Assembly: GCA_946626535.1 (NCBI GenBank) | Contig: CAMOUK010000016.1 | Location: 1 to 27,502, forward strand | DNA length: 27,502 nucleotides | Direction: 5' to 3' | Source of the DNA: an uncultured Caryophanales bacterium | GTDB lineage: Bacteria; Bacillota_I; Bacilli_A; Acholeplasmatales; Anaeroplasmataceae | Part shown: piece after piece, positions 63 to 21,060 of the stretch | Position numbering within the stretch: position 1 is the stretch's first letter | Layout: each line of letters starts with the position of its first letter | Translations under genes and position numbers: made by a program | The notes under the pieces: model-generated | Told to the model about the DNA's origin: nothing | Database searches by the model: none | Seen by the model: the letters and a program-made list of their open reading frames with translations, nothing else

Positions 63-1562
63 TTAATCTTCATGTATTAAAGTTAATCTTACTGCTTTAT
101 GCCAATTATGTATTTTTTTACTTCTTAATTCCTTATCCATTGATGGTTTAAATATTTTTTCAATTTCCTTATTATTTTTAATATCATCTATACTTTTCCA
201 ATAGCCTGTTTGAAGTCCTGCTAAGTAGGCAGCGCCTAAAGCTGTAACCTCTACAACCTTCGGTCTTATAACCTCAGCATTTAAGATATCAGCTTCAAAT
301 TGCATTAAAAAATCATTCTTACATGCTCCACCATCAACCTTTAATGATTTAATATCGATATTTAAATCATTTTCCATAGCCTTTAATACATCATAAACCT
401 GATAAGCTATACCTTCCAGTGTCGCTCTAATAATATGCTCCTTCGTAGTGGCTCTTGTAATACCAGTAATTATACCTCTTGCCTCTCCATCCCAATATGG
501 AGCACCAAGGCCAGTAAAGGCTGGAACTACATATACTCCACCAGTATCTTCTACCTTTAAGGCATATTCTTCTGTTTGAGCCCGACTCTTAACAAATCTT
601 AATTCATCTCTAAGCCATTTAACAGCCGCACCACCTATAAATACTGAACCCTCTAAAATATAATCAGGTCTCTTATCACCATATGAAGCAGCAAGTGTTG
701 TTAGAAGACCATGTTTTGATCTTAAAGGCTTATCTCCAGTATTCATAAGCATAAAACAGCCTGTTCCAAAGGTATTTTTAATATCGCCCTTTTCAACACA
801 TAATTGACCAAATAGTGCACCCTGCTGGTCACCAACAATACCAGTAATAGGAATAACAGCTCCAAGCTTTGATTGCTTAGTATAGCCATATAGATAGCTT
901 GATGGATGAACCTCTGGTAGCATTTCTAAAGGTATTCCAAATAGATCTAAAAGCTCATTATCCCATTTTAAATCATGAATATTAAACAAAAGTGTTCTTG
1001 AGGCATTGGTATAATCTGTTGCGAAAACCTCACCATCTGTTAAATGCCAAAGTAGATAAGTATCTACAGTACCAAAACATAGCTCACCATTTAAAGCTTT
1101 TTGTCTTGCGCCTTCTACATTATCTAAAATCCATTTAATTTTAGATGCACTAAAATATGGGTCTAGCCTTAGGCCTGTTTTTTCATATACCTTATCATCT
1201 AAGGTTTTATCCTCAAGTAAGCCCTTAATATATTTTTCAGTTCTTCTACATTGCCATACTATAGCGTTATAGATAGGCTTACCAGTCTTTTTATCCCAAA
1301 CAATAGTTGTTTCTCTTTGATTTGTTATACCAATAGAATCAATATCATTTAGTGATAATCCTGCTCTTGTAATAGCTGAATAAATACTTCCCATTTGGCT
1401 AGATAATATTTCTAATGGATCATGCTCAACCCAGCCTAAATTAGGATAAATTTGGCTAAATTCCTCCTGAGACATTCCCTTTATTTCACCCTTAGAATCA
1501 AATATTATGGCTCTAGATGAGGTAGTACCCTGATCTAGGGCTAAAATATATTTCTTACTCAT
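63..1562 (-). CDS. glpK: Glycerol kinase
   Basis: Phosphorylates glycerol to sn-glycerol 3-phosphate with ATP in the cytoplasm. The FGGY-family N-terminal signature [13 protein letters not shown] is at the start, followed by GITNQRETT, the [10 protein letters not shown] region, [15 protein letters not shown] and the C-terminal nucleotide-binding VDGGACKND. The 499 residues match the usual family length. The frame stays open 13 codons further upstream, but the start was set at ATG 1562 because GGAAAGGA lies just before it and the protein then begins [11 protein letters not shown] as in homologues. That ribosome binding site sits inside the last codons of the DUF1667 gene; one base separates that gene's stop from this start, so translation is probably coupled. 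It is the last gene of the operon. No glycerol facilitator gene is visible in the window. Residue 327 is one of only three CGG codons seen here. Confidence 0.97.
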
Positions 1563-1563
1563 T

Positions 1564-1923
1564 TTAAATCCTTTCCACATCGCGTGTAGCAACAACATCA
1601 ACGCCTGTGTTTAATACATTTTTAATAACAACATCACCAATATTTATAGGTGCTTCTATCTTGGTTTGCTTTAATAACTTAAGGCATTCAAAGATTAATT
1701 CCTTTGGTATAGCTTCCTTAGTTTTAACTGATAATACATTTTCCTTTCCATTTATTACATAAACAGATGAGGTAACCATTCTTTTTGGATGAAGTATTTC
1801 ATTAATTCCATAGGTTTCTCCTCTTTTACATGTATTACCTGTAACCTTTATATTATTTAAATCACTATCATCTACAGTTAGATGACAGCCCATTGGACAA
1901 TTTATACATATTAATTCTTTCAT
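1564..1923 (-). CDS. DUF1667 cysteine-rich redox protein (G3P oxidation operon)
   Basis: Small protein of 119 residues with Cys 6, 9, 13 and 32 (CxxCxxxC followed by a fourth Cys in GNTCKRG). This arrangement resembles an N-terminal iron-sulfur site of molybdopterin oxidoreductases and is typical of DUF1667. In many Firmicutes DUF1667 genes sit beside a GlpA-like dehydrogenase and an NAD(P)/FAD oxidoreductase, exactly as here, so it is probably an electron-transfer subunit or partner for glycerol-3-phosphate oxidation. That role is inferred from context. It starts three bases after the upstream gene ends and its own 3-prime end carries the glpK ribosome binding site. Confidence 0.9.
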
Positions 1924-1926
1924 AAG

Positions 1927-3183
1927 CTAGTCCCTCAAATATACCTTTATATTTTTAGCATTTCTAAGCTTTTCAACCTGTTTTGTATCAAGATTTATAT
2001 TTTCCATCTCACCAGGTGTAACAACCTGTTTAGGTTTTGAATATATAACCTCATCATCACAAGCTACCTCAAGCTTAATCTTCTTATAAACATTATTAAC
2101 TCTTAATTTAAAATTAAGTGGCTCATAATTATTATTTTTAATGATAGCCTCTGGAACTACATATCTTACCTTACCATCAGTTTCTATAGTAGTTGATTCT
2201 AATCTCTTCTTATCCTTATTATTTAGATATTCAACCACCTTTTTTCCAGCCTCCATAGCCTCCTTAGAAACATAATCAACTAAATCGTGAACATGAAGCA
2301 CATTACCACATTCAAAGATACCATCTACTGATGTCATTAAATTATCATCAACTATAGCACCTCTTGTTATATTTGATATTTTAACATCCGCACCACGAGC
2401 TAGCTCATTTTCCGGAAGTAGACCAACTGAAAGTAATAATGTATCACATTTAATTTCAAAGGCTGTATCCATAATTGGATTTAGCTTTTCATCAACCTTA
2501 GCAACCTTAACAGCCTCAACTCTCTTATCACCTTTAATTTCTACTACTGTATGGCTAAATAAAAGTGGAATATCAAAATCATTTAAGCATTGAACAATAT
2601 TTCTATTTAAGCCACTTGAATAAGGCATAAGCTCTATTACTGCCTTAACCTTAGCGCCCTCAAATATCATTCTTCTTGCCATAATTAAGCCTATATCACC
2701 AGATCCTAAAATAACTACTTCTTTACCTGGCATCAAGCCATCTATATTAACTAGCTTTTGGGCAGTACCTGCGCTATAAATGCCTGCACATCTAGAACCA
2801 GCAATATTAATAGCTCCTCTTGGGCGCTCCCTACAGCCACAAGAAAGGATTATAGCCTCTGCCTTTATAAGCATTAGGCCTTCAGATGATAAAGCCTTAA
2901 TTTCTTTATCCTTAGTTATTTCAATAACTGTAGTATTTAGCATGTATTTAATATTTCTTTTTTTAACCTCTTCAATAAATCTAGAGGCATATTCAGGACC
3001 AGTTAGCTCCTCGTTGAAGGTATGAAGTCCAAAGCCATTGTGGATACATTGATTTAAAATACCACCAAGCTTATCTTCTCTTTCAAGAATTAAAATATCC
3101 TTTTCACCAGAATCATAAGCACTCATCGCAGCCGCAAGACCAGCAGGTCCTCCACCAATAATTACTACCTTATAATTAAGCAT
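1927..3183 (-). CDS. NAD(P)/FAD-dependent oxidoreductase, G3P-dehydrogenase operon
   Basis: Flavoprotein of 418 residues of the pyridine nucleotide-disulfide oxidoreductase type. An N-terminal FAD-binding GGGPAG motif is at residues 10-15, a CGCRERPRGA segment follows, and a second dinucleotide-binding motif (VVILGSGDIGLIMARR) lies near residue 160. Near the C-terminal end of the Rossmann part is an FAD-contacting GIFECGNVLHVHD segment. The last roughly 90 residues form an extra domain seen in the family found next to GlpA-like dehydrogenases. It probably passes electrons from the dehydrogenase encoded just upstream to NAD(P) or another carrier; the acceptor cannot be read from sequence. Its ATG overlaps the preceding stop by eight bases, so the two are likely made together. 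Confidence 0.92.
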   Translation of the reverse strand: MLNYKVVIIGGGPAGLAAAMSAYDSGEKDILILEREDKLGGILNQCIHNGFGLHTFNEELTGPEYASRFIEEVKKRNIKYMLNTTVIEITKDKEIKALSSEGLMLIKAEAIILSCGCRERPRGAINIAGSRCAGIYSAGTAQKLVNIDGLMPGKEVVILGSGDIGLIMARRMIFEGAKVKAVIELMPYSSGLNRNIVQCLNDFDIPLLFSHTVVEIKGDKRVEAVKVAKVDEKLNPIMDTAFEIKCDTLLLSVGLLPENELARGADVKISNITRGAIVDDNLMTSVDGIFECGNVLHVHDLVDYVSKEAMEAGKKVVEYLNNKDKKRLESTTIETDGKVRYVVPEAIIKNNNYEPLNFKLRVNNVYKKIKLEVACDDEVIYSKPKQVVTPGEMENINLDTKQVEKLRNAKNIKVYLRD

Positions 3184-4615
3184 TGTCCTTTAACCTCCCC
3201 TCAATAAGCTCAGAGCCCTTGCCCTTTTTATTTATTTCATCAATAGAAACATTTAATTCTTTAGCTAATATTTCCATAATCTTTGGTGTACAAAAGCCCA
3301 TCTGACATCTTCCCATACCAGCTCTAACTCTTCTTTTTACACCATCTAAATCCTTAGCGCCTGGATTTCTTCTTATAGCCTCAACTATTTCAGCCTCACT
3401 TACAACCTCACATCTACAGATAACATGACCATATAAAGGATTACTCTTTATTGCTTCAAATAGCTCATCATCATTCATCTTAGAAATATGCTTAATGGAT
3501 AATCTATTTGGATTATAATTATTCTTTTCCTTTAAGCCTAAATAATCCTTAATATCATCTGCCGCTTTTTTAGCTATGGCAGGCGATGATGCAAGGCCTG
3601 GAGATTCTATACCAATTAAATTATATAGGCCATCGACATCAGAAGAAAATTCAACGACAAATTCTCCATTTTCCTCATGAGCTCTAATACCGCTAAATTG
3701 AGTTATTATTCCACCCTTAGGTAAGTTAGGAACTGACTTTAAGGCCTTATCCCAGACCTCCTTTAAGCCCTCATAAGTTGTATCGACATTATCCTTATCT
3801 AAAACATCTAAAGCTGTTGGACCTACAATAATATTTTTATGGGTAGTTGGAGAAACTAAAATACCCTTACCCATCTTTGTGGGTAGCTGGAATAATGTCT
3901 TTTCACAAATATATAAATATTCCTTATCAAGTAATACATATTCTCCCTTTCTTGGGATAATATGATATTTCTTATTTGATAGCATATTATTAATTTCATC
4001 GCTATGGCAGCCAGCCGCATTAACTAATACCTTTGCCTCATATTTAGAATTATCATCACATTCGATAATAAATTTATTATTTTCCCTTTTAATATTTATT
4101 ACCTTTTTATTAAATTCATATTTAACACCATTAGCACAAGCATTTTCTGCCATTGCGATACACATCTCATATGGTGATACAATACCAGATGTTTTAGCAT
4201 ATAAGCCCTCTACTACTTTCTTTGAAACATTAGGCTCCATTCTTCTAATTTCATCACCAGATAGTATTTCTACACATTCAACACCATTTTTGTTCGCTCT
4301 ATCTAATAATTCAACAAGTGTATCATGACCAGATTCATCAAAAGATAAAACAAAGGCACCATTATTAACATAAGGAAAATCTAATTCCTTAGCTAATGCT
4401 GGATACATTTTAGCACCTAATACATTATATTTAGCTTTTAATGAGCCTGGTTTAGCATCAAAGCCAGCGTGAACTATACCAGAATTAGCTTTAGTTGTTC
4501 CACAAGAAACATCATTTTCTTTTTCTAAAACTAAAATATTGGCATTATATTTAGATAAAAATCTAGCAATTGAAGATCCAATAATACCAGAACCAATAAT
4601 TATAATATCGTACAT
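3176..4615 (-). CDS. GlpA-like FAD-dependent glycerol-3-phosphate dehydrogenase with C-terminal [2Fe-2S]-type domain
   Basis: DAO-family flavoprotein of 479 residues, first gene of the glycerol operon. GSGIIGSS at residues 8-15 binds FAD; the early stretch CGTTKANSGIVHAGFDAKPGS is typical of this GlpA/L-2-hydroxyglutarate-oxidase-like family. The C-terminal part is a BFD-like iron-sulfur domain with Cys 400, 402, 437 and 442 (CxC, 34 residues, C, 4 residues, C). It most likely oxidises glycerol 3-phosphate to dihydroxyacetone phosphate together with the two redox proteins encoded downstream. An L-2-hydroxyglutarate oxidase activity cannot be excluded from the protein alone, but the operon ending in glpK favours glycerol 3-phosphate. 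A GAGGAG ribosome binding site precedes ATG 4615. Confidence 0.92.
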   Translation of the reverse strand: MYDIIIIGSGIIGSSIARFLSKYNANILVLEKENDVSCGTTKANSGIVHAGFDAKPGSLKAKYNVLGAKMYPALAKELDFPYVNNGAFVLSFDESGHDTLVELLDRANKNGVECVEILSGDEIRRMEPNVSKKVVEGLYAKTSGIVSPYEMCIAMAENACANGVKYEFNKKVINIKRENNKFIIECDDNSKYEAKVLVNAAGCHSDEINNMLSNKKYHIIPRKGEYVLLDKEYLYICEKTLFQLPTKMGKGILVSPTTHKNIIVGPTALDVLDKDNVDTTYEGLKEVWDKALKSVPNLPKGGIITQFSGIRAHEENGEFVVEFSSDVDGLYNLIGIESPGLASSPAIAKKAADDIKDYLGLKEKNNYNPNRLSIKHISKMNDDELFEAIKSNPLYGHVICRCEVVSEAEIVEAIRRNPGAKDLDGVKRRVRAGMGRCQMGFCTPKIMEILAKELNVSIDEINKKGKGSELIEGRLKDNA

Positions 4616-4681: not shown

Positions 4682-5908
4682 TTAATATTTTAAATCCTTT
4701 AAAATATATTCTTTTTTAATATCTTCTAATTTTGTTATAACCATTTTAACTTTACCGATATTATTAAACGAATTATCTAATAAATAGACATATTCATCAG
4801 CAATAATATATCTACCGTGTAATGAAGATGAGTTTATTATTTTAATATTATCTTTAACTTCACATTTATTTAAATAAGAATTTATTGAAGTTATTATTGT
4901 TATACTAATCTTAATATCTTCAAGCATAGATAAAAGAAATTTATCCGCGTAATTATCGATTATCATTAATTCATTTTTCGCCAAGAAAAATATTTTTCTA
5001 ATAAACGAATATGCCTCTACTATTTGTCCTTCAAAAAGTAATTTATCGTTATTAAAATAAATAGTATTTTCAATATTATTTATTCTCTTTTTTACATCAT
5101 CCATATCAGCTTCTAAATTTAATATATTGGATTGATATGCAATGATTCTGTCTTTATTAATTGAATATCCATAGAATAAATAATTCTTAATTACATTTGT
5201 AGCCCATTTTCTAAATTCAGTACCACGTCTAGATTTAACCCTATACCCTACAGCTATAATAACATCAAAATTATAATAAATGGTTGGCTTACTATTGCCA
5301 GTAAGTCGCATTTTTTGCGAATTACTCGCCTGTTCAACTTCATTTTCAGCAAAAATATTATTAATATGTTTTAAAATTGTTTTATAATCACGTTCAAAAA
5401 TTAATCCAATTTCTTCTGCATCTAACCATATAGTGTTTTCCTGTGGAGAAACATTTACATCAAGACAAAATTCACCATCTCTGAATTGGACAATTTCATA
5501 ATTTTTGGCTTCACTAAGCCATTTTCCTTCATTTTCCAATTGTACATAATCAATAAATAGTTTTTCAACCCAAGCCTTAAAAACTGTAGTTATTTCAGGA
5601 TTACATTTATATCCGACAGCTAAAATAATAACTAAATTATAATGTTTAATTTTACGATTTACTGACCTATAGCCCTCTGTTTGAACTACCGAGAAATCCT
5701 TGGTAATTGGACCTATAAAAGCATTATTAATAGACAAAGATGGTGTTATATTTTTAATGTGCAAACCTATATTGTCACTTGAAACACCTAATAAAACTGC
5801 CATATCCTTTTGACTCAACCATATAATTTTACTATTATAATCAACCTTAACATCTAAAGTGATATCTCCTTCCTTAAAAGTTTCTACTACATAATCTTCA
5901 TTAATCAT
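4682..5908 (-). CDS. Double RhuM-like protein with C-terminal PLD-like domain
   Basis: Protein of 408 residues. Residues about 139-258 match the RhuM family, with GEFCLDVNVSPQENTIWLD at the start and the hallmark DVIIAVGYRVKSRRGTEFRKWA near the end. Residues about 12-122 are a second, more diverged copy of the same unit (DITLDVKVDYNSKIIWLSQ, then LVIILAVGYKCNPEITTVFKAW), so the protein holds a tandem duplication. A helical linker (about 255-285) leads to a C-terminal domain with FEGQIVEAYSFI, LMIIDNYAD and SSLHGRYIIADEYVYLLDNS, like the PLD-like domain that ends many RhuM and ORF6N proteins. GGAGGG precedes the ATG. RhuM proteins are scattered, often on mobile or defence-associated DNA, and their biochemical role is not settled. 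Here the gene stands alone between housekeeping units. A nucleic-acid-binding or defence role is inference only. Confidence 0.85.
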   Translation of the reverse strand: MINEDYVVETFKEGDITLDVKVDYNSKIIWLSQKDMAVLLGVSSDNIGLHIKNITPSLSINNAFIGPITKDFSVVQTEGYRSVNRKIKHYNLVIILAVGYKCNPEITTVFKAWVEKLFIDYVQLENEGKWLSEAKNYEIVQFRDGEFCLDVNVSPQENTIWLDAEEIGLIFERDYKTILKHINNIFAENEVEQASNSQKMRLTGNSKPTIYYNFDVIIAVGYRVKSRRGTEFRKWATNVIKNYLFYGYSINKDRIIAYQSNILNLEADMDDVKKRINNIENTIYFNNDKLLFEGQIVEAYSFIRKIFFLAKNELMIIDNYADKFLLSMLEDIKISITIITSINSYLNKCEVKDNIKIINSSSLHGRYIIADEYVYLLDNSFNNIGKVKMVITKLEDIKKEYILKDLKY

Positions 5909-6080: not shown

Positions 6081-6779
6081 TTATTCTTTAATTAAATCCT
6101 TAATAACCTCAGATGCAATTATATAGCCTGCAACAGGTGGAACAAATGAAATTGAAGCAGGAATTACCTTACCATTTTCAACTATTTCTTCTACTGGCTT
6201 TTTAGGCTCTTCAATAGAATAACAAACCTTTAGCTTTTTAACTCCTCTTTTTCTAAGCTCATATCTCATAACTCTAGCTAAAGGGCATATTGTAGTTTTA
6301 TTAATATCAGTTATTCTAATATCTAATGGATTTAATTTATTACCCATACCCATACATGAAATAATAGGTATATTTAATTCATAACATCTTTTAACAATAT
6401 CAATTTTCGCACTAATTGTATCAATACAATCTATAACATAATCATATTTAGAAAAATCAATATCATTATTATCAGGTAGATAAAACATATTTAGCTTAGT
6501 AATATTAATATCCTTACATATTGATTTTACTCTAGCCTCTGCCACATCCAACTTAGGCATACCTATAACCTCTGATGTTGCGATTAACTGCCTATTAATA
6601 TTTGATTTTGCAACCTTATCAGCATCAACAATAGTTATATTTAAAATGCCTGATCTAGCCAAAGCCTCTAAACAGGCACCACCAACACCACCAACACCAA
6701 ACAATATGACATTTGACTTATTTAGTTTTTCTAGCTTTTCTTTTCCTATTAAAAGCTCTGTTCTTACAAATTCTTCCAT
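6081..6779 (-). CDS. tcdA: TcdA: tRNA threonylcarbamoyladenosine dehydratase (ThiF/E1-like)
   Basis: Cyclises t6A37 to ct6A37 in ANN-decoding tRNAs by an ATP-dependent dehydration. The opening RTELLIGKEKLEKL, the nucleotide-binding GVGGVG at residues 28-33, the E1-type DADKVAKSNINRQL and the later CMGMGNKLNPLDI segment identify the CsdL/TcdA branch of the ThiF superfamily rather than MoeB or ThiF. Its 232 residues fit this short branch. A GGAG site precedes the ATG. It lies downstream of the glycosyltransferase operon, with only a modest hairpin between, and is followed by a strong terminator. Confidence 0.93.
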   Translation of the reverse strand: MEEFVRTELLIGKEKLEKLNKSNVILFGVGGVGGACLEALARSGILNITIVDADKVAKSNINRQLIATSEVIGMPKLDVAEARVKSICKDINITKLNMFYLPDNNDIDFSKYDYVIDCIDTISAKIDIVKRCYELNIPIISCMGMGNKLNPLDIRITDINKTTICPLARVMRYELRKRGVKKLKVCYSIEEPKKPVEEIVENGKVIPASISFVPPVAGYIIASEVIKDLIKE

Positions 6780-6815: not shown

Positions 6816-8564
6816 TTATTCTTTATATTCTAGAGGGATTTTGTAGAAATCTTCATAGATTTCCTTCCAAACTCTCGCATTTTCTTCCATCATATAATCA
6901 ATATTTTCATTTAGCTTCTTACCCTCAACTGGATAAATAGGCTTTGCGATATTAATTGTATAGGCTTGAATTGGATATCCATCAACACCAACCTTATCTG
7001 TATCTTCCATTGTAATAAAGATTGGAAGTACAGGTACGTTCATTCTTGCAGCAAATTGGAAGCCACCACGCTTTAATGGCTTTGGCTTTCTATAATTCCA
7101 CCACATAGATTGTTCTGGATAGATTAAAATGAAATCACCATCTGATAGGATAGTTTTTACTGCTCTCATCAATTCTACCATTGTCTTTTCATTTGAAGAA
7201 AGTGGTAATGTATAGCAGTTACGCATTAGCTTACCATAGAAGCCTGGGAAGCTTGTGTAATTACCTTCTTTTATAATTCTATACATTCTTCTTTTCTTTT
7301 GACCTGATTTTTGATATGCAATCTCAGCAGCGAATGAATCAAATGCGTTAAAGTGATTCATTGTGATAATCGCACCAGAATTTAAGTTTTGGAAGTTTTC
7401 AACTCCCTTAACATCCTTAATAATTAAATCACCGTTCTTTAAAATTTTCTTTAAGAACTTTCCTGCAATTTTATATGCAAAGTGAGTTTTAATCTTAGAA
7501 GATAGTTTCTTTCTTAAATAATCTACCTCACCTGGCATAATAGTTCTTGAAGGTGGATCTATTTCAACATCCTGGTCGAAACGTTTTTCCATTTCAAACT
7601 CTGATATTTTCTTTAAAACTTCAATTCTAGATTTATCCTTAGTAATTAAATTTAAATAGTTATCTGGTCTATCAATTTCAGATTTAACTAAATCATTAAT
7701 AGATACTAATACATTTAAATCCTTCTGTTTTTGTTCTTCTGTATAATTATCTAAAATATCTTTAATTTCTTGATAATCTTCAGTTTGTTCAGCATATTTC
7801 CAGAAGTAGCTTCCTAGCTTACAATCTGCAAAATGCCATGGCTTAATAGCCATATCATAGTGGATAATCTTTAAATCCTTTTCTTCAACTGGTAAGTTTA
7901 GGAATGTTTGAGCATTCCAAGCTAAATCCAAAAATAAAATTCTCTTGTTACATAATAAATTGATATAGTCCTCATCTTGAGTAACTACAAATTTATAAAA
8001 TGATACTGAATCAATAAATTGACTTAAGAATTTTTCTTCTCTAAATAGTTTTGTGTTAATTAAAATAACACCAGCATTAATTGCTTCATTTCTTGATACG
8101 CCAAGTACCTTTTCAACATATTGACCATAAAGATCAACTTGAACAAAGGCTTGTTCACGCGCACCAGCGATTAAGTTATTTCCTAATTCATGATTATATA
8201 AATTAGCTATATCATCTAATACAATTGTATCACCATCAAGATAAATTGCCTTATTAAATTGAGGGAATTTATCAGCGATAAAGAATCTATAATATGTAGT
8301 TAAATTATAATAATCTCTTGCGAAAAGCTTCTCTTTAATTTCAGCAAGCTCGGCAGAAACATCATCAAATATAATAGAAACATTTTCCTTTTCTAATCTT
8401 TTTGATTTAGCAATAGTTTCTGGCTTAACATCTGTATGAAGAATATGAACCTCATATTTATATTCATCACTTGTATGATCTATTAATGACTTTAATGATA
8501 CATTAATATATTTTACATATTTATCATCTGTTAAATAAAATATAGGAATAACCTTTTCACTCAT
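6816..8564 (-). CDS. GT8 glycosyltransferase fused to a PlsC-type acyltransferase
   Basis: Two-domain protein of 582 residues. Residues 1-about 285 are a GT8 retaining glycosyltransferase with the metal/nucleotide-sugar motif DGD at 110-112, DxNAGVILINT-like acceptor segment, and the C-terminal IIHYDMAIKPW motif of the family. After a charged linker, residues about 385-575 form a lysophosphatidic-acid-acyltransferase-like (PlsC) domain with the catalytic H404-x4-D409 in NHFNAFD and the substrate motif YPEQSMWW around Glu 484. No signal peptide is seen; the PlsC half is expected to sit on the inner membrane face. It would be suited to adding a sugar and an acyl chain to the same lipid-linked molecule, but donor and acceptor are unknown. 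Its GT8 half is a close paralogue of the next gene upstream. AGAGGTG precedes the ATG. It is the last gene of the four-gene operon. Confidence 0.9.
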   Translation of the reverse strand: MSEKVIPIFYLTDDKYVKYINVSLKSLIDHTSDEYKYEVHILHTDVKPETIAKSKRLEKENVSIIFDDVSAELAEIKEKLFARDYYNLTTYYRFFIADKFPQFNKAIYLDGDTIVLDDIANLYNHELGNNLIAGAREQAFVQVDLYGQYVEKVLGVSRNEAINAGVILINTKLFREEKFLSQFIDSVSFYKFVVTQDEDYINLLCNKRILFLDLAWNAQTFLNLPVEEKDLKIIHYDMAIKPWHFADCKLGSYFWKYAEQTEDYQEIKDILDNYTEEQKQKDLNVLVSINDLVKSEIDRPDNYLNLITKDKSRIEVLKKISEFEMEKRFDQDVEIDPPSRTIMPGEVDYLRKKLSSKIKTHFAYKIAGKFLKKILKNGDLIIKDVKGVENFQNLNSGAIITMNHFNAFDSFAAEIAYQKSGQKKRRMYRIIKEGNYTSFPGFYGKLMRNCYTLPLSSNEKTMVELMRAVKTILSDGDFILIYPEQSMWWNYRKPKPLKRGGFQFAARMNVPVLPIFITMEDTDKVGVDGYPIQAYTINIAKPIYPVEGKKLNENIDYMMEENARVWKEIYEDFYKIPLEYKE

Positions 8565-8577
8565 TTTAAAACACCTC

Positions 8578-9555
8578 TTACTTGTTTAAAGCTCTTGCCT
8601 TATTATAAGCATATCTATTTCTAGATGCATTCTTTAATTTCATTTTATAATAATTATCTGGTCTTTCAATTTCAGATAATGCTAACTTTTCCAGTGAATC
8701 GAATACACCTAAAGCCTTTTGGCGCTTTTCTTCAGTAAAGCTCTCTAAACCTTGTTTTAATTCATCATAATATTCTGTTTGCTCAGCATAGAACCAGAAA
8801 TAATTGAATAGCTTACAATCCTTAAATGTCCAAGGTTTAATTGCCATATCGTAGTGAATGATTTTCATATCTTGTTCTTCAACAACTAAATCCATAAATG
8901 TTTGAGTATTCCATCCATCATCGATGAATTTAATTCTTCCGTTACATAAAACATTTAGATAATCCTCATCTTGAGTAACAACAAACTTATATTCGCCTAA
9001 AAGCTTAATAAATTTAGCAAGGATTTCTTCCTTTCTAAATGCATATGTATCCATTAGCATTACACCAGCATTAATTGTTTCATATCTAGAGATACCTAAT
9101 ACCTTATCGATATATGTACCATATAAATCTGATTGAACGAATGCTTGTTCATGAGCACCACCGATAATATTATCGCCTAAATCAATATCATATAGCTTTG
9201 CGATATCATCTAATACAACTGTATCACCATCAATATAGATAACCTTATCAAATTGAGGGAACATATCAGCAATAAAGAATCTATAATATGTTGTTAGATT
9301 ATAATAATCTCTTGCGAAAAGCTTTTCTTTAATCTTTTCGAATCTTTCAGTAACATCATCAAATTCAATCTTAACATAAGAAGTTTCTAATCTTCTTGTG
9401 ATTTCCATTGTCTTTTCTGTAATATCTGTATTCAAAATATGAATTTCATAATCATTGTCTGCAGATGCGTTAGCAACGATTGATTTGATACAAACGTTGA
9501 TATATTTCATATAGTTATCATCGCAAATAAAGAATATTGGAACTATTTTTCTCAT
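8578..9555 (-). CDS. GT8 family glycosyltransferase
   Basis: Protein of 325 residues, almost wholly a GT8 domain: DGD at residues 109-111, ETINAGVMLMDT, VTQDEDYLNVLCN, and IIHYDMAIKPW near the end of the catalytic part. Long stretches are identical or nearly so to the N-terminal half of the fusion protein downstream (for example the shared KEKLFARDYYNLTTYYRF), so the two arose by tandem duplication and one gained or lost the PlsC part. GT8 enzymes move a hexose, often glucose or galactose, from a UDP-sugar to a glycan or lipid acceptor with retention; the specific sugar cannot be told. ATG is preceded by AAGGAGA and overlaps the previous stop as ATGA. It ends 13 bases before the fusion gene. 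Confidence 0.9.
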   Translation of the reverse strand: MRKIVPIFFICDDNYMKYINVCIKSIVANASADNDYEIHILNTDITEKTMEITRRLETSYVKIEFDDVTERFEKIKEKLFARDYYNLTTYYRFFIADMFPQFDKVIYIDGDTVVLDDIAKLYDIDLGDNIIGGAHEQAFVQSDLYGTYIDKVLGISRYETINAGVMLMDTYAFRKEEILAKFIKLLGEYKFVVTQDEDYLNVLCNGRIKFIDDGWNTQTFMDLVVEEQDMKIIHYDMAIKPWTFKDCKLFNYFWFYAEQTEYYDELKQGLESFTEEKRQKALGVFDSLEKLALSEIERPDNYYKMKLKNASRNRYAYNKARALNK

Positions 9556-10388
9556 TTTTTAATCTCCTTATTATATTTATTTTTTAGATAAATATATTCT
9601 TCATATATATCGTCAAAACAATAATACTTAAATACCTTATGAACTCTACTAACCTTCCACTGCTTAATATTATCTGTATGTGGGTAAGGTAGCCAGAATA
9701 ATCTCTTTGAGAAATGTCTTACAACAGTATGCTTATGTAAGAACTTTTGGTCATTAAACTTTTGAGGAAGCATCTTTTTTCTTGTTACTGATCTCATTAA
9801 TGCACTTTGGTCAGCAAAGATTAGCTTCTTTTTCTTTAATATTGCTCTACATTTTTCAAATAGCTTAGTTTCCTTAGCCTTAGCCAAATTAAATAATATT
9901 ACACCAGCATTCATATAATTTGGTTGAACTAGATATTTACCATAATGATCTCTTGCGCAAGCAAATTCATATTCGGTAACATCTTGGTTATATAAAAGTT
10001 CAATGTCTCTATTAAACATGATATCAACATCTAAATATAAGAATTTATCTGGCATACCATCGACTAAATCAGCAAATAATCTAATTAATGTATATGGTGA
10101 GCAATATGCACCTTCGTTAGGGCAGCCCTTAAATTCTCTTAAATAAATATCAGTAACATCAACCTTAGTTATCTTATTTTCAGGATGATACTGTTTAACA
10201 ACACTATCAAGATAATTAATTAAGCCATCAGAAATAGGCTTATAATTTTCCTTTAGATAGCTAACATCCATAGTATATATATAAATGTTATATGGACCTT
10301 GATATTTACTTCTTTTAAATATTGAAAGCATACATGTCAATATTCCATCGAACACATATTCATTTCCACAAAATAATAAATTAATCAT
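9552..10388 (-). CDS. GT8-like glycosyltransferase (divergent)
   Basis: Protein of 278 residues with a GT8 fold pattern: a DVD motif at residues 120-122 in KFLYLDVDIMF, an acceptor-side MNAGVILFNLA segment, FADQSALMR in place of the DEDYLN motif, and a C-terminal basic tail. It is much less like the two neighbouring GT8 genes than they are like each other, so it likely uses a different sugar or acceptor. The C-terminal HFSKRLFWLPYPH takes the place of the usual HxxGxxKPW. It overlaps the upstream acyltransferase gene by eight bases and the downstream GT8 gene by four, and is the only gene besides the Nudix gene to end in TGA. Confidence 0.85.
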   Translation of the reverse strand: MINLLFCGNEYVFDGILTCMLSIFKRSKYQGPYNIYIYTMDVSYLKENYKPISDGLINYLDSVVKQYHPENKITKVDVTDIYLREFKGCPNEGAYCSPYTLIRLFADLVDGMPDKFLYLDVDIMFNRDIELLYNQDVTEYEFACARDHYGKYLVQPNYMNAGVILFNLAKAKETKLFEKCRAILKKKKLIFADQSALMRSVTRKKMLPQKFNDQKFLHKHTVVRHFSKRLFWLPYPHTDNIKQWKVSRVHKVFKYYCFDDIYEEYIYLKNKYNKEIKK

Positions 10389-11160
10389 TTTCCTTTTCCT
10401 TATAGATATATTTTATATATTCAATATCATTTTCCTTTGATCTTAATACCATTTGGTTATAAACCTTATCTCTAAGGTTTTGTCTTGCTTCCTTCATTGA
10501 TAAGCCATCATCTGCGAAGAATGGACCATCAACATATGTAACCATCTTTGGTTTACCATTTTTTCTTTTCTTATAAACGTTAGTCATCGCAAATGTTGGT
10601 ACATTATATGATATAGGATAACTAAAGCTCATATTTGTAAATGGTCTAATCTTTGTATAGAAAGGCCAAATGTGAGCCTCAGGATAAATAAATACAACAT
10701 GTTTTTGTTTTATTCTTTTTTCTATACACTTATTAAAATTCTTCATGGCTTTAGCATTTCCTGGAAGTGGAATAGCTCCAAGTGATGGAGTTATTTTTCC
10801 AATAACCTTAATTGATACATTATTTGGATGAACAATTAAGTAGGCATCCTTTGGAAATACAACCATTGATGGATTAAAGGCATCTGCCATATTATGAGTA
10901 TGATTGCCATAAACGAAATAGCCTTGCTTCTTATATGGCTTCAATACTTTTTTATTTATGATTTTATGCTTTAAAGCACACTTCATATAAAGGTAAGCAA
11001 TTGGTGTTGCAACTATGCGGTACCAAAAGAACTTTGAAATTACCTTTAATGGATTTTTATGTAAGTATTTATATTTTTCATCTATAGGCTTAGCAACTAT
11101 ATTGTCGCCAGCAAACTCATCATTTAATTCATCACTATAATAAATAATTTTTTGTTCCAT
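10381..11160 (-). CDS. PlsC-type (1-acylglycerol-3-phosphate-like) acyltransferase
   Basis: Protein of 259 residues from ATG 11160. The frame is open to 11220, but the promoter TTGACT-16-TAAAAT lies inside that extension, so translation must begin downstream of it. GGGATTGGTG is the nearest purine-rich stretch before the chosen start. Acyltransferase motifs are GNHTHNMAD (His 87, Asp 93: spacing H-x5-D rather than the classic H-x4-D) and FIYPEAHIWP (Glu 161). An aliphatic stretch near residue 50 may bind the membrane. It would transfer an acyl chain to a lipid or glycolipid, and as first gene of the operon it is coupled to the glycosyltransferases. Its role could be general phosphatidic-acid synthesis, but the neighbours favour a glycolipid or acylated glycan. 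Confidence 0.85.
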   Translation of the reverse strand: MEQKIIYYSDELNDEFAGDNIVAKPIDEKYKYLHKNPLKVISKFFWYRIVATPIAYLYMKCALKHKIINKKVLKPYKKQGYFVYGNHTHNMADAFNPSMVVFPKDAYLIVHPNNVSIKVIGKITPSLGAIPLPGNAKAMKNFNKCIEKRIKQKHVVFIYPEAHIWPFYTKIRPFTNMSFSYPISYNVPTFAMTNVYKKRKNGKPKMVTYVDGPFFADDGLSMKEARQNLRDKVYNQMVLRSKENDIEYIKYIYKEKEND

Positions 11161-11183
11161 GGCGTTCACCAATCCCATTGTAA

Positions 11184-11211
11184 ATTTTATAACAAAATTA
11201 TTTATAGTCAA
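11184..11211 (-). promoter_or_regulatory. Promoter of the acyltransferase/GT8 operon
   Basis: On the minus strand TTGACT (11206-11211), a 16-base spacer and TAAAAT (11184-11189). Transcription should begin near 11177, leaving a leader of less than 20 bases before ATG 11160. This rules out the longer reading frame that starts at 11220. Confidence 0.65.
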
Positions 11212-11231
11212 CAGCTCCAATTATAAACTTA

Positions 11232-11280
11232 ATTCTACTAATATTAGAGCGTTTTTTAACAACTCTCATAATAGTAGAGT
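11232..11280. repeat. Pair of inverted 18-base operator-like repeats
   Basis: CTCTCATAATAGTAGAGT (11263-11280, plus strand) and CTCTAATATTAGTAGAAT (11232-11249, read on the minus strand) match at 15 of 18 positions and face each other with 13 bases between. The 11263 copy also has 5-base inverted ends (ACTCT/AGAGT) when read from 11262. They sit between the divergent promoters of the XRE regulator and the glycosyltransferase operon, where such a regulator would be expected to bind. The match is seen directly; operator function is inferred. Confidence 0.55.
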
Positions 11281-11315
11281 TGGCGTAACTAAGCCTTTTT
11301 TTTCTCTATTTTGTG

Positions 11316-11324
11316 TGTTATAAT
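11316..11324 (+). promoter_or_regulatory. Extended -10 promoter of the XRE regulator, leaderless start
   Basis: TGTTATAAT is a perfect extended -10. Its end lies six bases before ATG 11331, so the predicted transcription start coincides with the start codon. No ribosome binding site precedes that ATG. No good -35 is seen (a T-run at 11296-11301). Confidence 0.65.
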
Positions 11325-11330
11325 ACAGTT

Positions 11331-11924
11331 ATGGAAGATTTAAAACTTATTATAGCTCAGAACCTAGTAGAGTTAAGAAAAAGGAAAAAATATACTCAAC
11401 AGGACCTTGCAAACATCCTAGGATACTCAGATAAATCTATATCAAAATGGGAGAAAGGAGACTCTTTACCAGATATAGAAATACTTACTAAAATTTGTAA
11501 TCTGTACAATGTAACCCTAGACTATTTAATTCATGAAGGTCACTATGAGGAGAAAAAACAATATGTAGTTAATACCTACGAAAGACGAAATAAGATAGTA
11601 ATTGTCGGTCTTATAACCTCTTTAATTTGGCTTATTGCCATAATTATTCTTGCTTATTCAATGACATTTACAAATTCTAAGCAGCCTCAATGGATGGCAT
11701 GTGTATGGGCTGTTCCTGCAACCTTTATTGTATTATTAGTATTCAATTCCCTATGGGGTAGAAAAAAATGGAAATATCCAATAATCGCTTTGCTTATCTG
11801 GACAGCCATCGCTTCTATCTATTTACAGGTATTAGTAATAACAAATCAAAACGTATGGCCACTGTTCTTCATTGGTATTCCACTTCAAATAGCTGTAGTG
11901 CTGTGGAGTCAAATTAAGCATTAG
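11331..11924 (+). CDS. Membrane-tethered XRE-family transcriptional regulator
   Basis: Protein of 197 residues. Residues 6-66 form an HTH_3 domain (LRKRKKYTQQDLANILGYSDKSISKWEKG, then LPDIEILTKICNLYNVTLDYL). After a charged linker come about four hydrophobic segments (roughly 88-111, 121-142, 150-170 and 175-193), so it is a DNA-binding protein anchored in the membrane. The frame is open from GTG 11313, but that extension contains the -10 hexamer, so ATG 11331 is chosen; the mRNA is then probably leaderless. It is divergent from the acyltransferase/GT8 operon across a region with two facing repeats, which suggests it controls itself and that operon, perhaps in response to the state of the membrane. 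A terminator follows directly. Confidence 0.88.
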   Translation: MEDLKLIIAQNLVELRKRKKYTQQDLANILGYSDKSISKWEKGDSLPDIEILTKICNLYNVTLDYLIHEGHYEEKKQYVVNTYERRNKIVIVGLITSLIWLIAIIILAYSMTFTNSKQPQWMACVWAVPATFIVLLVFNSLWGRKKWKYPIIALLIWTAIASIYLQVLVITNQNVWPLFFIGIPLQIAVVLWSQIKH

Positions 11925-11928
11925 AAAA

Positions 11929-11953
11929 AGCTCTTGTAAAAGAGCTCTTTTTT
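11929..11953. terminator. Bidirectional terminator
   Basis: Stem AGCTCTT/AAGAGCT with a GTAA tetraloop. The plus strand continues CTTTTTT after the XRE gene; the minus strand continues TTTTTCTAA after the small gene at 11952-12293, whose stop codon lies at the edge of the T-tract. Confidence 0.8.
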
Positions 11954-12293
11954 ATAGATAGCTTAATACCTGTCTTACTGCCTTTTTACGTACTACTTCT
12001 CTTTTTTCTTCATTTATTATAATTGGTTCAATATTGTTATCTTTTAAATAATCAACTAGAGCATTATGATCATCTAAATCAATAATTACCTTTTCATAAT
12101 TATATTTAGAGATCATAACCTTCGCATAGTTTAAAGCTTTGGTTGAATCTAAATAATAAGAAGAAAAATTATCTAAAGTATATTTTTTCAGCATTTTTTT
12201 AATTAGAGGATTATTCATACTGGCAAATGTATTATTCTTATAGATGTAATCTATAAACATTTCCTGACCTAAGATTAATATTCTTTTTTTCAT
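11952..12293 (-). CDS. Hypothetical protein, 113 residues
   Basis: Not recognised. ATG 12293 (MKKRILILGQEMFIDYIY) is chosen over the in-frame GTG at 12302 because GAGGTG stands six bases before this ATG and the GTG lies inside that site. The protein is basic, has no signal peptide or membrane segment, and alternates hydrophobic strands (ILILG, KVIIDLD, IEPIIIN) with helices, which suggests a small alpha/beta fold. The tail RKKAVRQVLSYL is a basic helix. It is convergent with the XRE gene and divergent from the DUF1836 gene, with its own promoter and a 17-base dyad just after the -10, so its expression is probably controlled. Confidence 0.7.
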   Translation of the reverse strand: MKKRILILGQEMFIDYIYKNNTFASMNNPLIKKMLKKYTLDNFSSYYLDSTKALNYAKVMISKYNYEKVIIDLDDHNALVDYLKDNNIEPIIINEEKREVVRKKAVRQVLSYL

Positions 12294-12325
12294 AATTAGC
12301 ACCTCAACTTTCTCTATTATATCAT

Positions 12326-12416: not shown

Positions 12417-12439
12417 GTTTGTAGATTGAGGTGGTAGTA

Positions 12440-13033
12440 ATGGATAATATTAAAAAGACATTAGAAGATTGGTTAAATGAGCTTAATAATTTCTCTTTTA
12501 AGAAATACGAGGAATTACCAGATATCGATTTATATATGGATCAGGTAGTTAATTTCTTAGAAAAGCAAATCAAAATATTCCAAACATCATCACTTGATAA
12601 GCAAATTACCTCTTCTATGATTAATAACTATGTAAAGGGTGAGGTAGTTGCCGCACCAATTGCTAAAAAGTACAATAAGGAGCATTTAGCTTCTATTGAG
12701 GAGGTTATTACCTTAAAACAGGTATTATCTATAGCCGAAGTAAAACAAATACTAAATACAAGATATAATGATGAAGCTGTAAAGGGTGATATCTTTAATG
12801 CCTTCAATGACTTACAAACAGAAAAGATTTCTTCTATTGTATCTGAGGCATTTAAGCATTTAAATGATATCGATGATAACGACACTAAGGCATTAATAGA
12901 TTTAGCACTTGATTTTGCCTTATCCGCAACAGCTTATATTAATATTTCTAAAAAGATATTATTCTTAATTAGAGTGTATGAACAATTAAATTCTAGTAAG
13001 GAAGAAAAGAAAGATAAAAAAGATGAAGCTTAA
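12440..13033 (+). CDS. DUF1836 domain protein
   Basis: Protein of 197 residues. Residues about 25-105 match DUF1836 (LPDIDLYMDQVVNFLEKQ, then ITSSMINNYVKGEVVAAPIAKKYNKEHLA), a helix-rich module found in Firmicutes that resembles a winged or MerR-like DNA-binding domain. The rest is helical and ends in a lysine-rich tail. Its role is not known; a regulator is likely from the fold. ATG 12440 is chosen because GAGGTGG lies just upstream; the in-frame GTG 12431 is part of that site. It overlaps the convergent ricA gene by four bases, and the last codons form the stem of a shared terminator. Confidence 0.88.
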   Translation: MDNIKKTLEDWLNELNNFSFKKYEELPDIDLYMDQVVNFLEKQIKIFQTSSLDKQITSSMINNYVKGEVVAAPIAKKYNKEHLASIEEVITLKQVLSIAEVKQILNTRYNDEAVKGDIFNAFNDLQTEKISSIVSEAFKHLNDIDDNDTKALIDLALDFALSATAYINISKKILFLIRVYEQLNSSKEEKKDKKDEA

Positions 13034-17429: not shown

Positions 17430-18131
17430 ATGAAAAAAGAGAATAATACAACACAAAAGAAAAAATTACCTTTTGGTAGAAATATATTTACATTCGTATT
17501 TGGTATAGTAGTAATTCTAATATTAACCTGTATAATTTATACAATTACTAGCTACACTACTACCTATAATAAAAATAAATTTACTCCATTTACTGATGAA
17601 GCAGTAGGTAAGGCTTATGAATCAAGCTCATATAAGCTTGACGATGTAACAAGAACAAACTTCAAAAACTTTAATGATTTTGGTGTAGTACTAACTTGTA
17701 CATCATATGACGAGGATGAAAATACAGGTGCTACTATTAAGGCATCTTATAAGGTAGCCCTATATAAGTATGAAAATACAAGAGATATCAAAAATGGTAC
17801 AGTTGATGTAATGATCTGTATGGGTGCGGATTGGATTAACTTCTTAAAATATCCAACATCAACTTCTATAAGAACATTAGAATTTAATTCATCTGAAGAG
17901 GTTGCAAAGCAAGCTTCACCTACTTATTCAAGAACATTTAGCTTCTCAGGACTTGTAGATTTCCCAGCTAAGGCAAATACATGGCCTATTCCTATTACAG
18001 TTGATTGCCCAAATATCTATTTATATTTAAGCTATCAATATCAAGAAAATGGTAAAACATTAACTAAGAGCTATGTATTACAATATAGCTACTATGATTT
18101 AATTCCACAATCTGGTGGTATCATAAAGTAA
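17430..18131 (+). CDS. Hypothetical single-pass membrane protein with extracellular domain
   Basis: Not recognised. Of 233 residues, the first 16 are polar and positive, residues about 19-41 (IFTFVFGIVVILILTCIIYTI) span the membrane, and the rest is a polar, Thr/Ser/Tyr-rich domain expected outside the cell (positive-inside rule). The outer part alternates short beta-like strands and has three cysteines. No lipobox or peptidase motif is seen. GAGGTG precedes the ATG. It is monocistronic, divergent from rny and ended by a bidirectional terminator. Confidence 0.75.
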   Translation: MKKENNTTQKKKLPFGRNIFTFVFGIVVILILTCIIYTITSYTTTYNKNKFTPFTDEAVGKAYESSSYKLDDVTRTNFKNFNDFGVVLTCTSYDEDENTGATIKASYKVALYKYENTRDIKNGTVDVMICMGADWINFLKYPTSTSIRTLEFNSSEEVAKQASPTYSRTFSFSGLVDFPAKANTWPIPITVDCPNIYLYLSYQYQENGKTLTKSYVLQYSYYDLIPQSGGIIK

Positions 18132-18166: not shown

Positions 18167-18901
18167 TTAAAAGTTTTCAGCATTGATATGGAAGTTTGAA
18201 TTATCAAATACTTCCTTTTCATCAGCAAGTGATGTTAATAAAACTGAAGCTGCATAAACACTAATTGGATTTGAAAAATCTACACCAACAATTGCGTTAT
18301 ATGCCTTTTCAACAACTACCTCTTTGCCTTCTTCCTTTTCATCTAAATCAAAGAAGTTATAAGCCATAAAGCCCTTTAAGGCATCACAATATGCTTTAAA
18401 GTTTAAGAATATTGTAATGTCATTTTTCTTTGCTAGCTTATCAAGCTTTGAATCTAGCTTATATACTAGCTCTCTAACATTAGTGATATCTTCATTAAAT
18501 GCCTTAAAATAGAATTTAACATCTTCATTTTCCATTTCAACAAAATTAGTTTTATTTTCAAGCATATTATTATAATCTTTTCTTAATGCCTCATAGCCTT
18601 CCCATCTATTTTGTGGAATGCCTTTTTTATTTTTATCGAAATCATCTAATACCTTACCGATAAAATAGTGATTTACTCCACCGATAATTTCTAGCTTGAA
18701 GCTTTTAATTATTTTCATTAAATCATTTACATAATCCTTATCGATAATAGCCTCAACTATAATTTCATTTGTTAAACCTAAAGGTAAGCTTTGAGTATAT
18801 TCAAATGGTGTTTTTGCCATTGAAACAAATCCTCTTTGCATACCTCTTTTATTTAACTTTTTCGCTCTAGCCTCAAATTGGCTTAATGTTATCTCTTCCA
18901 T
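18167..18901 (-). CDS. Hypothetical cytoplasmic protein downstream of engB
   Basis: Not recognised. Protein of 244 residues, acidic and helix-rich, without signal peptide or membrane segment. It begins MEEITLSQFEARAKKLNKRG and has a conserved-looking IIGGVNHYFIGKVLDDFDKN near residue 73 and a single cysteine. It starts one base after the engB stop, so it is co-translated with that GTPase; a link with ribosome assembly is possible only on that ground. The ribosome binding site is weak (AAGAG). Confidence 0.75.
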   Translation of the reverse strand: MEEITLSQFEARAKKLNKRGMQRGFVSMAKTPFEYTQSLPLGLTNEIIVEAIIDKDYVNDLMKIIKSFKLEIIGGVNHYFIGKVLDDFDKNKKGIPQNRWEGYEALRKDYNNMLENKTNFVEMENEDVKFYFKAFNEDITNVRELVYKLDSKLDKLAKKNDITIFLNFKAYCDALKGFMAYNFFDLDEKEEGKEVVVEKAYNAIVGVDFSNPISVYAASVLLTSLADEKEVFDNSNFHINAENF

Positions 18902-21040: not shown

Positions 21041-21060
21041 GCCTAAGAATATTCTTAAGC
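21041..21060 (-). terminator. Terminator overlapping the end of the lipoprotein gene
   Basis: GCTTAAGA/TCTTAGGC hairpin with one mismatch and a four-base loop, overlapping the stop codon and followed on the minus strand by TTTTTG. Confidence 0.65.

What the first reader, a model, noticed from the sequence alone, without database searches (positions are those of the whole stretch)
6816..11924. Acyltransferase/GT8 cassette with a divergent membrane-bound regulator
Four overlapping or closely spaced genes encode a PlsC-type acyltransferase, a divergent GT8 enzyme, a GT8 enzyme and a GT8-PlsC fusion. A membrane-tethered XRE regulator is divergent from them. GT8 and PlsC motifs are plain in the sequence. 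Two sugar-adding and acyl-adding activities fused in one chain, plus separate versions of each, suggest a dedicated pathway for an acylated glycolipid or lipid-linked glycan, possibly adjusted in response to the membrane by the regulator. I know of no named system with this exact make-up.
Basis: partly seen in the sequence, partly recalled or inferred. Interest (0 to 1): 0.75.

Follow-up and report, generated by a model that had tools for sequence, protein, structure and literature searches.

The report
Membrane-regulated GT8–PlsC glycolipid operon
A conserved set of sugar-adding and fatty-acid-adding enzyme genes, found in many uncultured gut bacteria, shares a DNA switch with a membrane-bound regulator that in other bacteria also sits beside a fatty-acid-binding protein gene, which suggests an undescribed lipid pathway and its control.

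Summary
In detail: four enzyme genes and the divergent membrane XRE gene are where stated. PlsC-like, divergent GT8 and GT8-PlsC fusion, in that order, are a conserved unit (71 of 80 related loci); a natural triple fusion exists. The free GT8 is a local duplicate.

New: the XRE-cassette gap holds two degenerate copies of a palindrome, TCTACTnnnAGTAGA, 30 bp apart; it is exact in that gap in six related genomes. It also precedes the cassette in some Clostridia and an Erysipelotrichaceae MAG without adjacent XRE. There, all eight other exact sites lie beside a DegV (FakB-type) gene, seven also beside an XRE-4TM homologue. In wider sampling 31 of 43 classified sites lie beside XRE, DegV, HlyIII or cassette genes, against 1 of 25 control sites.

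Best reading: a four-TM XRE regulator controls synthesis of an acylated glycolipid, perhaps as activator. Regulation is supported by comparison; product is inferred. Against: 0 of 29 DegV genes in the window's order have the site; 54 of 69 cassettes lack it; XRE is adjacent and divergent in only 4 of 80 loci.

The parts
10381..11220 (-). PLSC: divergent PlsC-fold acyltransferase, first gene of the cassette (likely start ATG 11160)
9552..10388 (-). GT8d: divergent GT8 glycosyltransferase, core gene
   Evidence: PF01501 53.6 bits; DxD in 71 of 71; contiguous with PLSC and FUS in 71 of 80 loci
8578..9555 (-). GT8b: free GT8, local duplicate of the fusion's GT8 domain
   Evidence: PF01501 151.3 bits; 62% identical to FUS N-terminus; clade of four with window FUS_N and the free GT8s of G126/G089, support 100/98
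6816..8564 (-). FUS: GT8-PlsC two-domain fusion, core gene
11313..11924 (+). XRE-4TM: membrane-tethered HTH regulator (likely ATG 11331)
   Evidence: HTH_3 56.5 bits; hydrophobic segments; recognition-helix stretch YSDKxxSxWE invariant in 22 aligned homologues
11264..11278 (.). Operator site 1, TCTCATAATAGTAGA (2 mismatches to TCTACTnnnAGTAGA)
   Evidence: exact counterparts in relatives
11234..11248 (.). Operator site 2, TCTACTAATATTAGA (1 mismatch), 30 bp from site 1; these two are the only places in the window with 2 mismatches or fewer
   Evidence: a 30-bp pair also in G089, G126, G004
11184..11211 (-). Predicted sigma-70 promoter of the cassette (TTGACT-N16-TAAAAT, start about 11176)
   Evidence: consensus script; operator centres at -95 and -65
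12431..13033 (+). DUF1836 gene, neighbour of uncertain relevance
   Evidence: PF08876 98.2 bits; neighbour in L016, L018, L028 and others; HlyIII genes neighbour DUF1836 per PMC3146951 (passages)

Best explanation
The cassette is a lipid-modification operon. GT8d and the GT8 domain of FUS add hexose units from nucleotide sugars to a membrane lipid acceptor. The PlsC domain of FUS, and perhaps the divergent PLSC, then acylate the product, giving an acylated glycolipid. A membrane-tethered XRE regulator with about four TM segments binds tandem TCTACTnnnAGTAGA-type sites upstream of the cassette promoter (about -95 and -65 in the window) and next to its own divergent gene, so that transcription follows the state of the membrane; the upstream position favours activation. 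In some Clostridia and Erysipelotrichales the same site type also precedes DegV/FakB-family and HlyIII genes, tying the regulator to fatty-acid supply. Shown here: gene order, domains, site conservation and site-gene association. Inferred: binding by this XRE, activation, sensed signal, enzyme activities, acceptor and product.
For: Cassette conserved as a unit: 71 of 80 loci; triple fusion P0101; no other ORF family in more than 12 of 80 loci. Exact operator in the XRE-cassette gap of G001, G003, G004, G085, G126, G089 and G384 (L175). Operator within 450 bp upstream of PLSC at 1 mismatch or fewer in 12 of 69 loci, against 10 of 1420 random windows of the same loci. In 12 genomes of such loci, 8 of 8 non-cassette exact sites lie beside DegV, 7 of them also beside XRE-4TM. 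In wider sampling 31 of 43 classified sites lie beside XRE, DegV, HlyIII or cassette genes, against 1 of 25 control sites (Fisher 2e-8); 28 of 40 without the two centre genomes. Full-length XRE-4TM in 4 of 4 operator-positive genomes against 2 of 20 operator-negative ones. A DegV-XRE-GT8-PlsC-like run in one locus, L213. Folds: GT8 domain like WbbM/LgtC, PLSC like PlsC/GPAT/PatA. EG[TS]R is absent in 80 of 80 FUS and 71 of 71 PLSC homologues; that its Arg contacts the acceptor phosphate in PlsC is recalled.
Against: No biochemical or lipid data. In six Acholeplasmatales genomes 0 of 29 examined DegV upstream regions have the site at 2 mismatches or fewer, so the DegV link is not seen in the window's nearest sampled kin. 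54 of 69 cassette loci have no such site upstream of PLSC. XRE is adjacent and divergent in only 4 of 80 loci. Within the window's order, G002, G087 and G110 have the cassette fusion but no exact site at all, and no XRE shows in the flanks held for G002, G087, G118 and G080. The window's own sites are imperfect. Exact sites without a regulon gene: 2 of 8 (L114, L116) and 12 of 43. L213 itself, and the XRE loci L212 and L229, have no site at 2 mismatches or fewer. PLSC lacks HX4D in 71 of 71 and could be inactive. Promoter positions are consensus guesses, unclear for L118, L047 and L060, and -74 for L023.
Confidence: 0.55

Rival explanations
1. The XRE only regulates itself; its operator next to the cassette is a by-product of being divergent, and the cassette is not its target.
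For: Autoregulation is common for XRE proteins (recalled); XRE is adjacent and divergent in only 4 of 80 cassette loci.
Against: An exact site precedes the cassette where the XRE-4TM gene lies on another contig (G155, G160, G161, G163), and the site's distance to the top-scoring predicted cassette promoter is -95 to -97 in five Acholeplasmatales loci counting the window.
Confidence: 0.1
2. The XRE is a repressor of the cassette rather than an activator, relieved by a membrane or fatty-acid signal.
For: Many characterised XRE regulators repress (recalled); promoter calls on the XRE side are ambiguous and some place a site inside the core promoter.
Against: On the cassette side sites sit about 65-119 bp upstream of predicted starts in the loci with a clear call, away from the core promoter.
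Confidence: 0.3
3. The cassette decorates a lipid-linked glycan, lipoteichoic acid or a lipoglycan (capsule-like surface polymer) rather than making a membrane glycolipid.
For: The nearest GT8 structures are surface-polysaccharide or LPS enzymes, WbbM and LgtC (roles recalled).
Against: No further gene family recurs beside the cassette in more than 12 of 80 loci, so no polymerase, flippase or transporter travels with it (flanks are cut by contig ends in many loci). Two acyltransferase domains and the DegV link elsewhere point to lipids.
Confidence: 0.25
4. A de novo route: GT8 enzymes glycosylate a small polyol (such as glycerol) and the two PlsC-type domains then add both acyl chains.
For: Two GT8 and two PlsC-type proteins or domains in the core unit balance; loss of EG[TS]R in both acyltransferases.
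Against: No precedent known to me; PLSC lacks HX4D.
Confidence: 0.1

Closest known systems
PatA (mycobacterial PIM acyltransferase)
   Different: Stand-alone enzyme for PIM mannose (recalled); 6-8% identical over the aligned part
PlsC/AGPAT (1-acylglycerol-3-phosphate acyltransferase)
   Different: EG[TS]R missing in all 80 FUS and 71 PLSC homologues checked; NCBIfam TIGR00530 cut-off not reached
LgtC / WbbM GT8 galactosyltransferases
   Same: GT8 fold and DxD
   Different: No acyltransferase partner domain; act on surface polysaccharide or LPS (recalled)
Acholeplasma laidlawii acylated glucolipids (MAMGlcDAG/MADGlcDAG; recalled)
   Same: Acylated glycoglycerolipids in a related order
   Different: Known glucosyltransferases there are GT4 (recalled); no link to this cassette tested
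FabT / FapR fatty-acid regulons (recalled)
   Same: Lipid-gene regulation in Gram-positive bacteria
   Different: Soluble MarR/DeoR-type regulators with other operators; here an XRE HTH fused to about four TM segments
HlyIII-DegV and HlyIII-DUF1836 gene neighbourhoods (PMC3146951)
   Same: DegV-HlyIII linkage noted from STRING (passages read)
   Different: No XRE, operator or PlsC in the passages read; glycosyltransferases are named there only as marginal to medium-score links

Membership tests
GT8 (PF01501) | Curated Pfam score and DxD motif | tested here: met
   FUS 125.1, GT8b 151.3, GT8d 53.6 bits against 24.3; DxD in 80 of 80 FUS and 71 of 71 GT8d
PlsC/AGPAT acyltransferase | PF01553 curated score | tested here: met
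   FUS 50.8, PLSC 23.0 against 23 bits; PLSC only just
PlsC/AGPAT acyltransferase | NH-x4-D catalytic motif, fusion | tested here: met
   79 of 80 FUS homologues
PlsC/AGPAT acyltransferase | NH-x4-D catalytic motif, stand-alone PLSC | tested here: not met
   0 of 71; NHT-x4-[DE], one residue longer, in 71 of 71
PlsC/AGPAT acyltransferase | EG[TS]R acceptor-phosphate motif (role recalled) | tested here: not met
   0 of 80 FUS, 0 of 71 PLSC; PEQSxWWNY in 80 of 80 and PEAHIWP in 71 of 71 instead
PlsC/AGPAT acyltransferase | Acyltransferase fold, FUS C-terminal domain | tested here: inconclusive
   The structure lists of the whole FUS model are filled by its GT8 domain; the domain was not folded alone
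1-acylglycerol-3-phosphate O-acyltransferase TIGR00530 | NCBIfam cut-off 102.95 bits | tested here: not met
   FUS 37.6, PLSC 18.7 bits
LPS 3-alpha-galactosyltransferase NF011718 | NCBIfam cut-off 461 bits | tested here: not met
   GT8b 62.1, GT8d 24.1 bits
XRE/HTH_3 regulators | PF01381 curated score | tested here: met
   56.5 against 23 bits
RstR repressors NF041951 | NCBIfam cut-off 80 bits | tested here: not met
   62.1 bits
DegV family (regulon genes in other genomes) | PF02645 curated score | tested here: met
   7 of 7 DegV proteins scanned, 189-233 bits against 27
FakB1 NF038249 (regulon genes) | NCBIfam cut-off 350 bits | tested here: not met
   79-143 bits in 4 of 4 DegV proteins scanned; fatty-acid binding is inferred from the DegV family
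PatA-like sugar acyltransferases | Acylates a sugar hydroxyl | not testable with these tools
   fold similarity of PLSC only

The most novel reading that the evidence does not exclude
A previously undescribed lipid-homeostasis regulon of gut Bacillota and Mycoplasmatota: a membrane-embedded XRE sensor reads bilayer or fatty-acid state, switches on FakB-type fatty-acid use and a GT8-PlsC assembly line through one operator (TCTACTnnnAGTAGA), and so makes a new class of acylated glycolipid. In the window's lineage the regulator has become dedicated to the glycolipid branch.
Probability: 0.45. Interest if true: 0.8.

Novelty: new variant of a known kind. Interest (0 to 1): 0.6.

Why it matters
Gut Bacillota glycolipids are immunologically and physiologically relevant (recalled), yet many of their biosynthetic genes are unknown. 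A conserved GT8-PlsC unit plus a defined operator and regulator gives a testable gene set for a lipid class, and a candidate membrane-tethered transcription factor that couples fatty-acid supply to lipid make-up.

Tried and rejected
Own genome: none is held, so the window's other operator sites and DegV genes could not be checked.

Conserved flanking genes: apart from the three core genes no ORF family recurs in more than 12 of 80 loci (many flanks are cut by contig ends). One of the two 12-locus families looks like an antisense ORF over PLSC (L004 3626-4564, minus).

DegV link in the window's order: sought and not found, 0 of 29 at 2 mismatches or fewer. One search listed 38 match rows and gave 30 loci; L255 gave no DegV BLAST hit and was dropped, and L233 had only a short upstream stretch.

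Fusion unique to this genome: rejected.

GT8b as a core fourth enzyme: rejected. It groups with the free GT8s of G126/G089, and the window's FUS N-terminus is sister to these three.

Strict consensus promoter TTGACA-N15-19-TATAAT in the window: none.

PDB sequence search with the PLSC profile: nothing at E 1 or below. With the FUS C-terminal piece: only two unrelated weak hits, E about 0.25. No PlsC-type chain shows in the listed structure matches of the FUS model, which its GT8 domain fills.

Papers: ten searches of the held library. Searches returned no paper. Searches listed 7, 3, 1 and 2 papers; passages were read only of PMC3146951 and PMC8406281, and of the rest I saw title and start of abstract only. 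None of what I saw describes this system.

L143 was counted as XRE-adjacent, but its regulator looks like a LexA/CI-type repressor (sequence, my reading); without it the count is 30 of 43 (Fisher 4e-8).
Full report

HOW CONSERVED. The fusion has 3520 homologues at E 0.001 or below among 8000 scored candidates; the 120 listed carry both domains. In 71 of 80, PLSC-GT8d-FUS lie contiguous in that order. The nine others are L007, L014, L016, L018, L028, L029, L037, L062 and L075 (the last close to a contig end). Named carriers include Roseburia faecis, Anaeroplasma bactoclasticum, many Lachnospiraceae, Oscillospiraceae and Ruminococcus MAGs, an Erysipelotrichaceae MAG and two Treponema MAGs. The distribution is patchy: in the family of G005 (Roseburia) 4 of 200 genomes match at E 1e-100 or below, of which one is the centre itself and one matches only in the PlsC half. 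In the order of G001 (Anaeroplasma) 11 of 150 genomes have a near-full-length fusion, four of them already known to me. P0101 (875 aa) is a natural GT8d-GT8-PlsC triple fusion: 63% to GT8d over its residues 1-274, 64% to the FUS C-terminus over 592-863. At least six relatives have the fusion as two adjacent genes (G126, G089, G056, G100, G102, G071). Fusion and separation both argue that the activities work together.

WHERE THE WINDOW COMES FROM. G126 and G089, drawn from the order of Anaeroplasma in this collection, are closest among the genomes compared: GT8d 76-79%, GT8b 70-71%, PLSC 67-71%, XRE 65-66%, DUF1836 89-91% over short pieces. So the window is probably from an uncultured relative of Acholeplasmatales (inference).

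THE EXTRA GT8. Window FUS N-terminus, GT8b and the free GT8s of G126 and G089 form a clade (100/98); GT8b groups with the free GT8s (99/93). GT8b keeps part of the fusion's linker (its match to FUS runs to FUS residue 313). So GT8b most likely arose by a local duplication in this lineage (inference).

ACTIVE SITES. DxD is present in 80 of 80 FUS and 71 of 71 GT8d. NH-x4-D is present in 79 of 80 FUS. PLSC has NHT-x4-[DE], one residue longer than canonical, in 71 of 71. EG[TS]R is missing in all; instead PEQSxWWNY (80 of 80) and PEAHIWP (71 of 71). From PlsC enzymology (recalled), that Arg contacts the acceptor phosphate, so a neutral, sugar-bearing acceptor is plausible. This is inference.

THE OPERATOR. 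Between XRE and PLSC lies a 19-nt inverted repeat, 84% complementary (11231-11249 / 11263-11281). Each arm is a degenerate copy of TCTACTnnnAGTAGA, with centres 30 bp apart: one mismatch at 11234, two at 11264; no other place in the window comes within 2 mismatches. Exact copies sit in the XRE-cassette gap of G001, G003, G004, G085, G126 and G089. Of 12 genomes scanned 7 have an exact match, 8 distinct sites in all: six in that gap and two elsewhere without a regulon gene. The tool's reversed-pattern control also rings once in 5 of the 12 genomes, so single exact sites alone prove little; it is their place that counts. The 30-bp second site recurs at 1-2 mismatches in G089, G126 and G004. A further genome, G384 (L175), has the exact site between divergent XRE and a distant PLSC-GT8d. 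By the top-scoring predicted cassette promoter, site centres lie at -95 to -97 in five Acholeplasmatales loci counting the window (with a second site at -65 to -67 in two), at -101/-71 in L115 (or -96/-66 by a lower-scoring call), and at -104 to -119 in seven Clostridial loci, four of which look alike; L023 gives -74, and L118, L047 and L060 are unclear. An upstream position fits activation, but these promoters are consensus guesses.

BEYOND LINKAGE. Within 450 bp upstream of PLSC, 12 of 69 loci have the site at 1 mismatch or fewer and 15 of 69 at 2 or fewer; random windows from the same loci give 10 and 24 of 1420. In 12 genomes taken from such loci, 8 have exact sites, 13 in all. Five are at the cassette (expected from the selection). 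The other eight all lie beside a DegV gene, seven also beside an XRE-4TM homologue 34-38% identical, six with HlyIII next (Pfam checks on some). In six of the seven the site lies between the end of XRE and the start of DegV; in L132 it lies between the two divergent genes. In 247 genomes of one family and one order, chosen only through the centres G160 and G155, there are 51 distinct exact TTCTACTnnnAGTAGA sites, and 43 had a locus to classify. By BLAST, 31 of 43 lie beside XRE (19), DegV (18) or cassette (4) genes within 400 bp, or HlyIII (4) within 1500 bp; 30 of 43 without the doubtful L143, 28 of 40 without the two centre genomes. A palindrome of like composition, searched in the order only, gives 1 of 25 classified sites (26 distinct). 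Fisher: 2e-8; within the order alone 21 of 30 against 1 of 25, 3e-7. Full-length XRE-4TM is found in 4 of 4 operator-positive genomes and 2 of 20 operator-negative ones that I chose from the loci at hand. One of those two (G423, L213) has DegV, XRE-4TM, a GT8 38% identical to the FUS N-terminus and a partial ORF 39% identical to the linker and start of the FUS PlsC half (no Pfam match by itself), in a row, though without an operator at 2 mismatches or fewer. The XRE stretch YSDKxxSxWE is invariant in 22 aligned homologues, with one more K nearly so, as expected if all read one operator. That helix occurs in other XRE proteins too (recalled), so other regulators could share the site.

AGAINST. 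In six Acholeplasmatales genomes none of 29 examined DegV genes has the site at 2 mismatches or fewer upstream. So in the window's lineage the regulator looks dedicated to the cassette, and the fatty-acid link is borrowed from distant relatives. XRE is adjacent and divergent in only 4 of 80 loci, 54 of 69 cassettes lack the site, and even within the order some cassette genomes lack both (G002, G087). Signal, binding and product are untested.

LITERATURE. Ten searches of the held open-access library showed no description of the GT8-PlsC cassette or this regulon in what I saw. The nearest is PMC3146951 (passages read): some bacterial hemolysin III genes neighbour DegV or DUF1836 genes. DUF1836 also neighbours the XRE in the window and in several relatives. 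Subscription papers are not covered, so 'not in print' is not claimed.

VERDICT. Real, conserved, unnamed operon (confidence about 0.95). XRE-operator control of the cassette in this lineage about 0.85. Acylated-glycolipid product about 0.55.

Noticed in passing
window 63-4615: Glycerol-type operon: FGGY carbohydrate kinase, DUF1667, pyridine-nucleotide oxidoreductase, and DAO/BFD-like [2Fe-2S] oxidoreductase (probably anaerobic glycerol-3-phosphate oxidation, inferred), same strand as the cassette.
   Followed up: partly
window 4682-5908: RhuM-family protein with two RhuM matches; 22.9 bits, below cut-off, to a VPA1262-type domain at its C-terminus.
   Followed up: no
window 6081-6779: TcdA-like ThiF-family gene 36 bp downstream of FUS on the same strand; possibly co-transcribed, but not part of the conserved unit.
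   Followed up: partly
window 11952-12302: 116-aa protein without Pfam or NCBIfam match, tail-to-tail with XRE, recurring beside DUF1836 in relatives with XRE (L113, L115) or without it (L018, L082, L087).
   Followed up: partly
window 12431-13033: DUF1836 (HTH clan per PMC3146951) neighbour; that paper notes HlyIII-DUF1836 linkage, and HlyIII follows DegV beside the XRE-4TM site elsewhere.
   Followed up: partly
L139 2-1348 and L229 1571-2743: Other neighbours of XRE-4TM homologues: an AMP-binding acyl-CoA ligase-like gene (L139, with the operator) and a GT4 glycosyltransferase with 44.7 bits, below cut-off, to alpha-monoglucosyl-DAG synthase (L229, no site).
   Followed up: partly
window 22279-24561 and 25238-27316: Two large proteins with weak S41 peptidase domains.
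   Followed up: no
window 17430-18131, 18167-18901, 21055-22122, 24624-25187: Predicted genes without any Pfam match at E 0.001.
   Followed up: no
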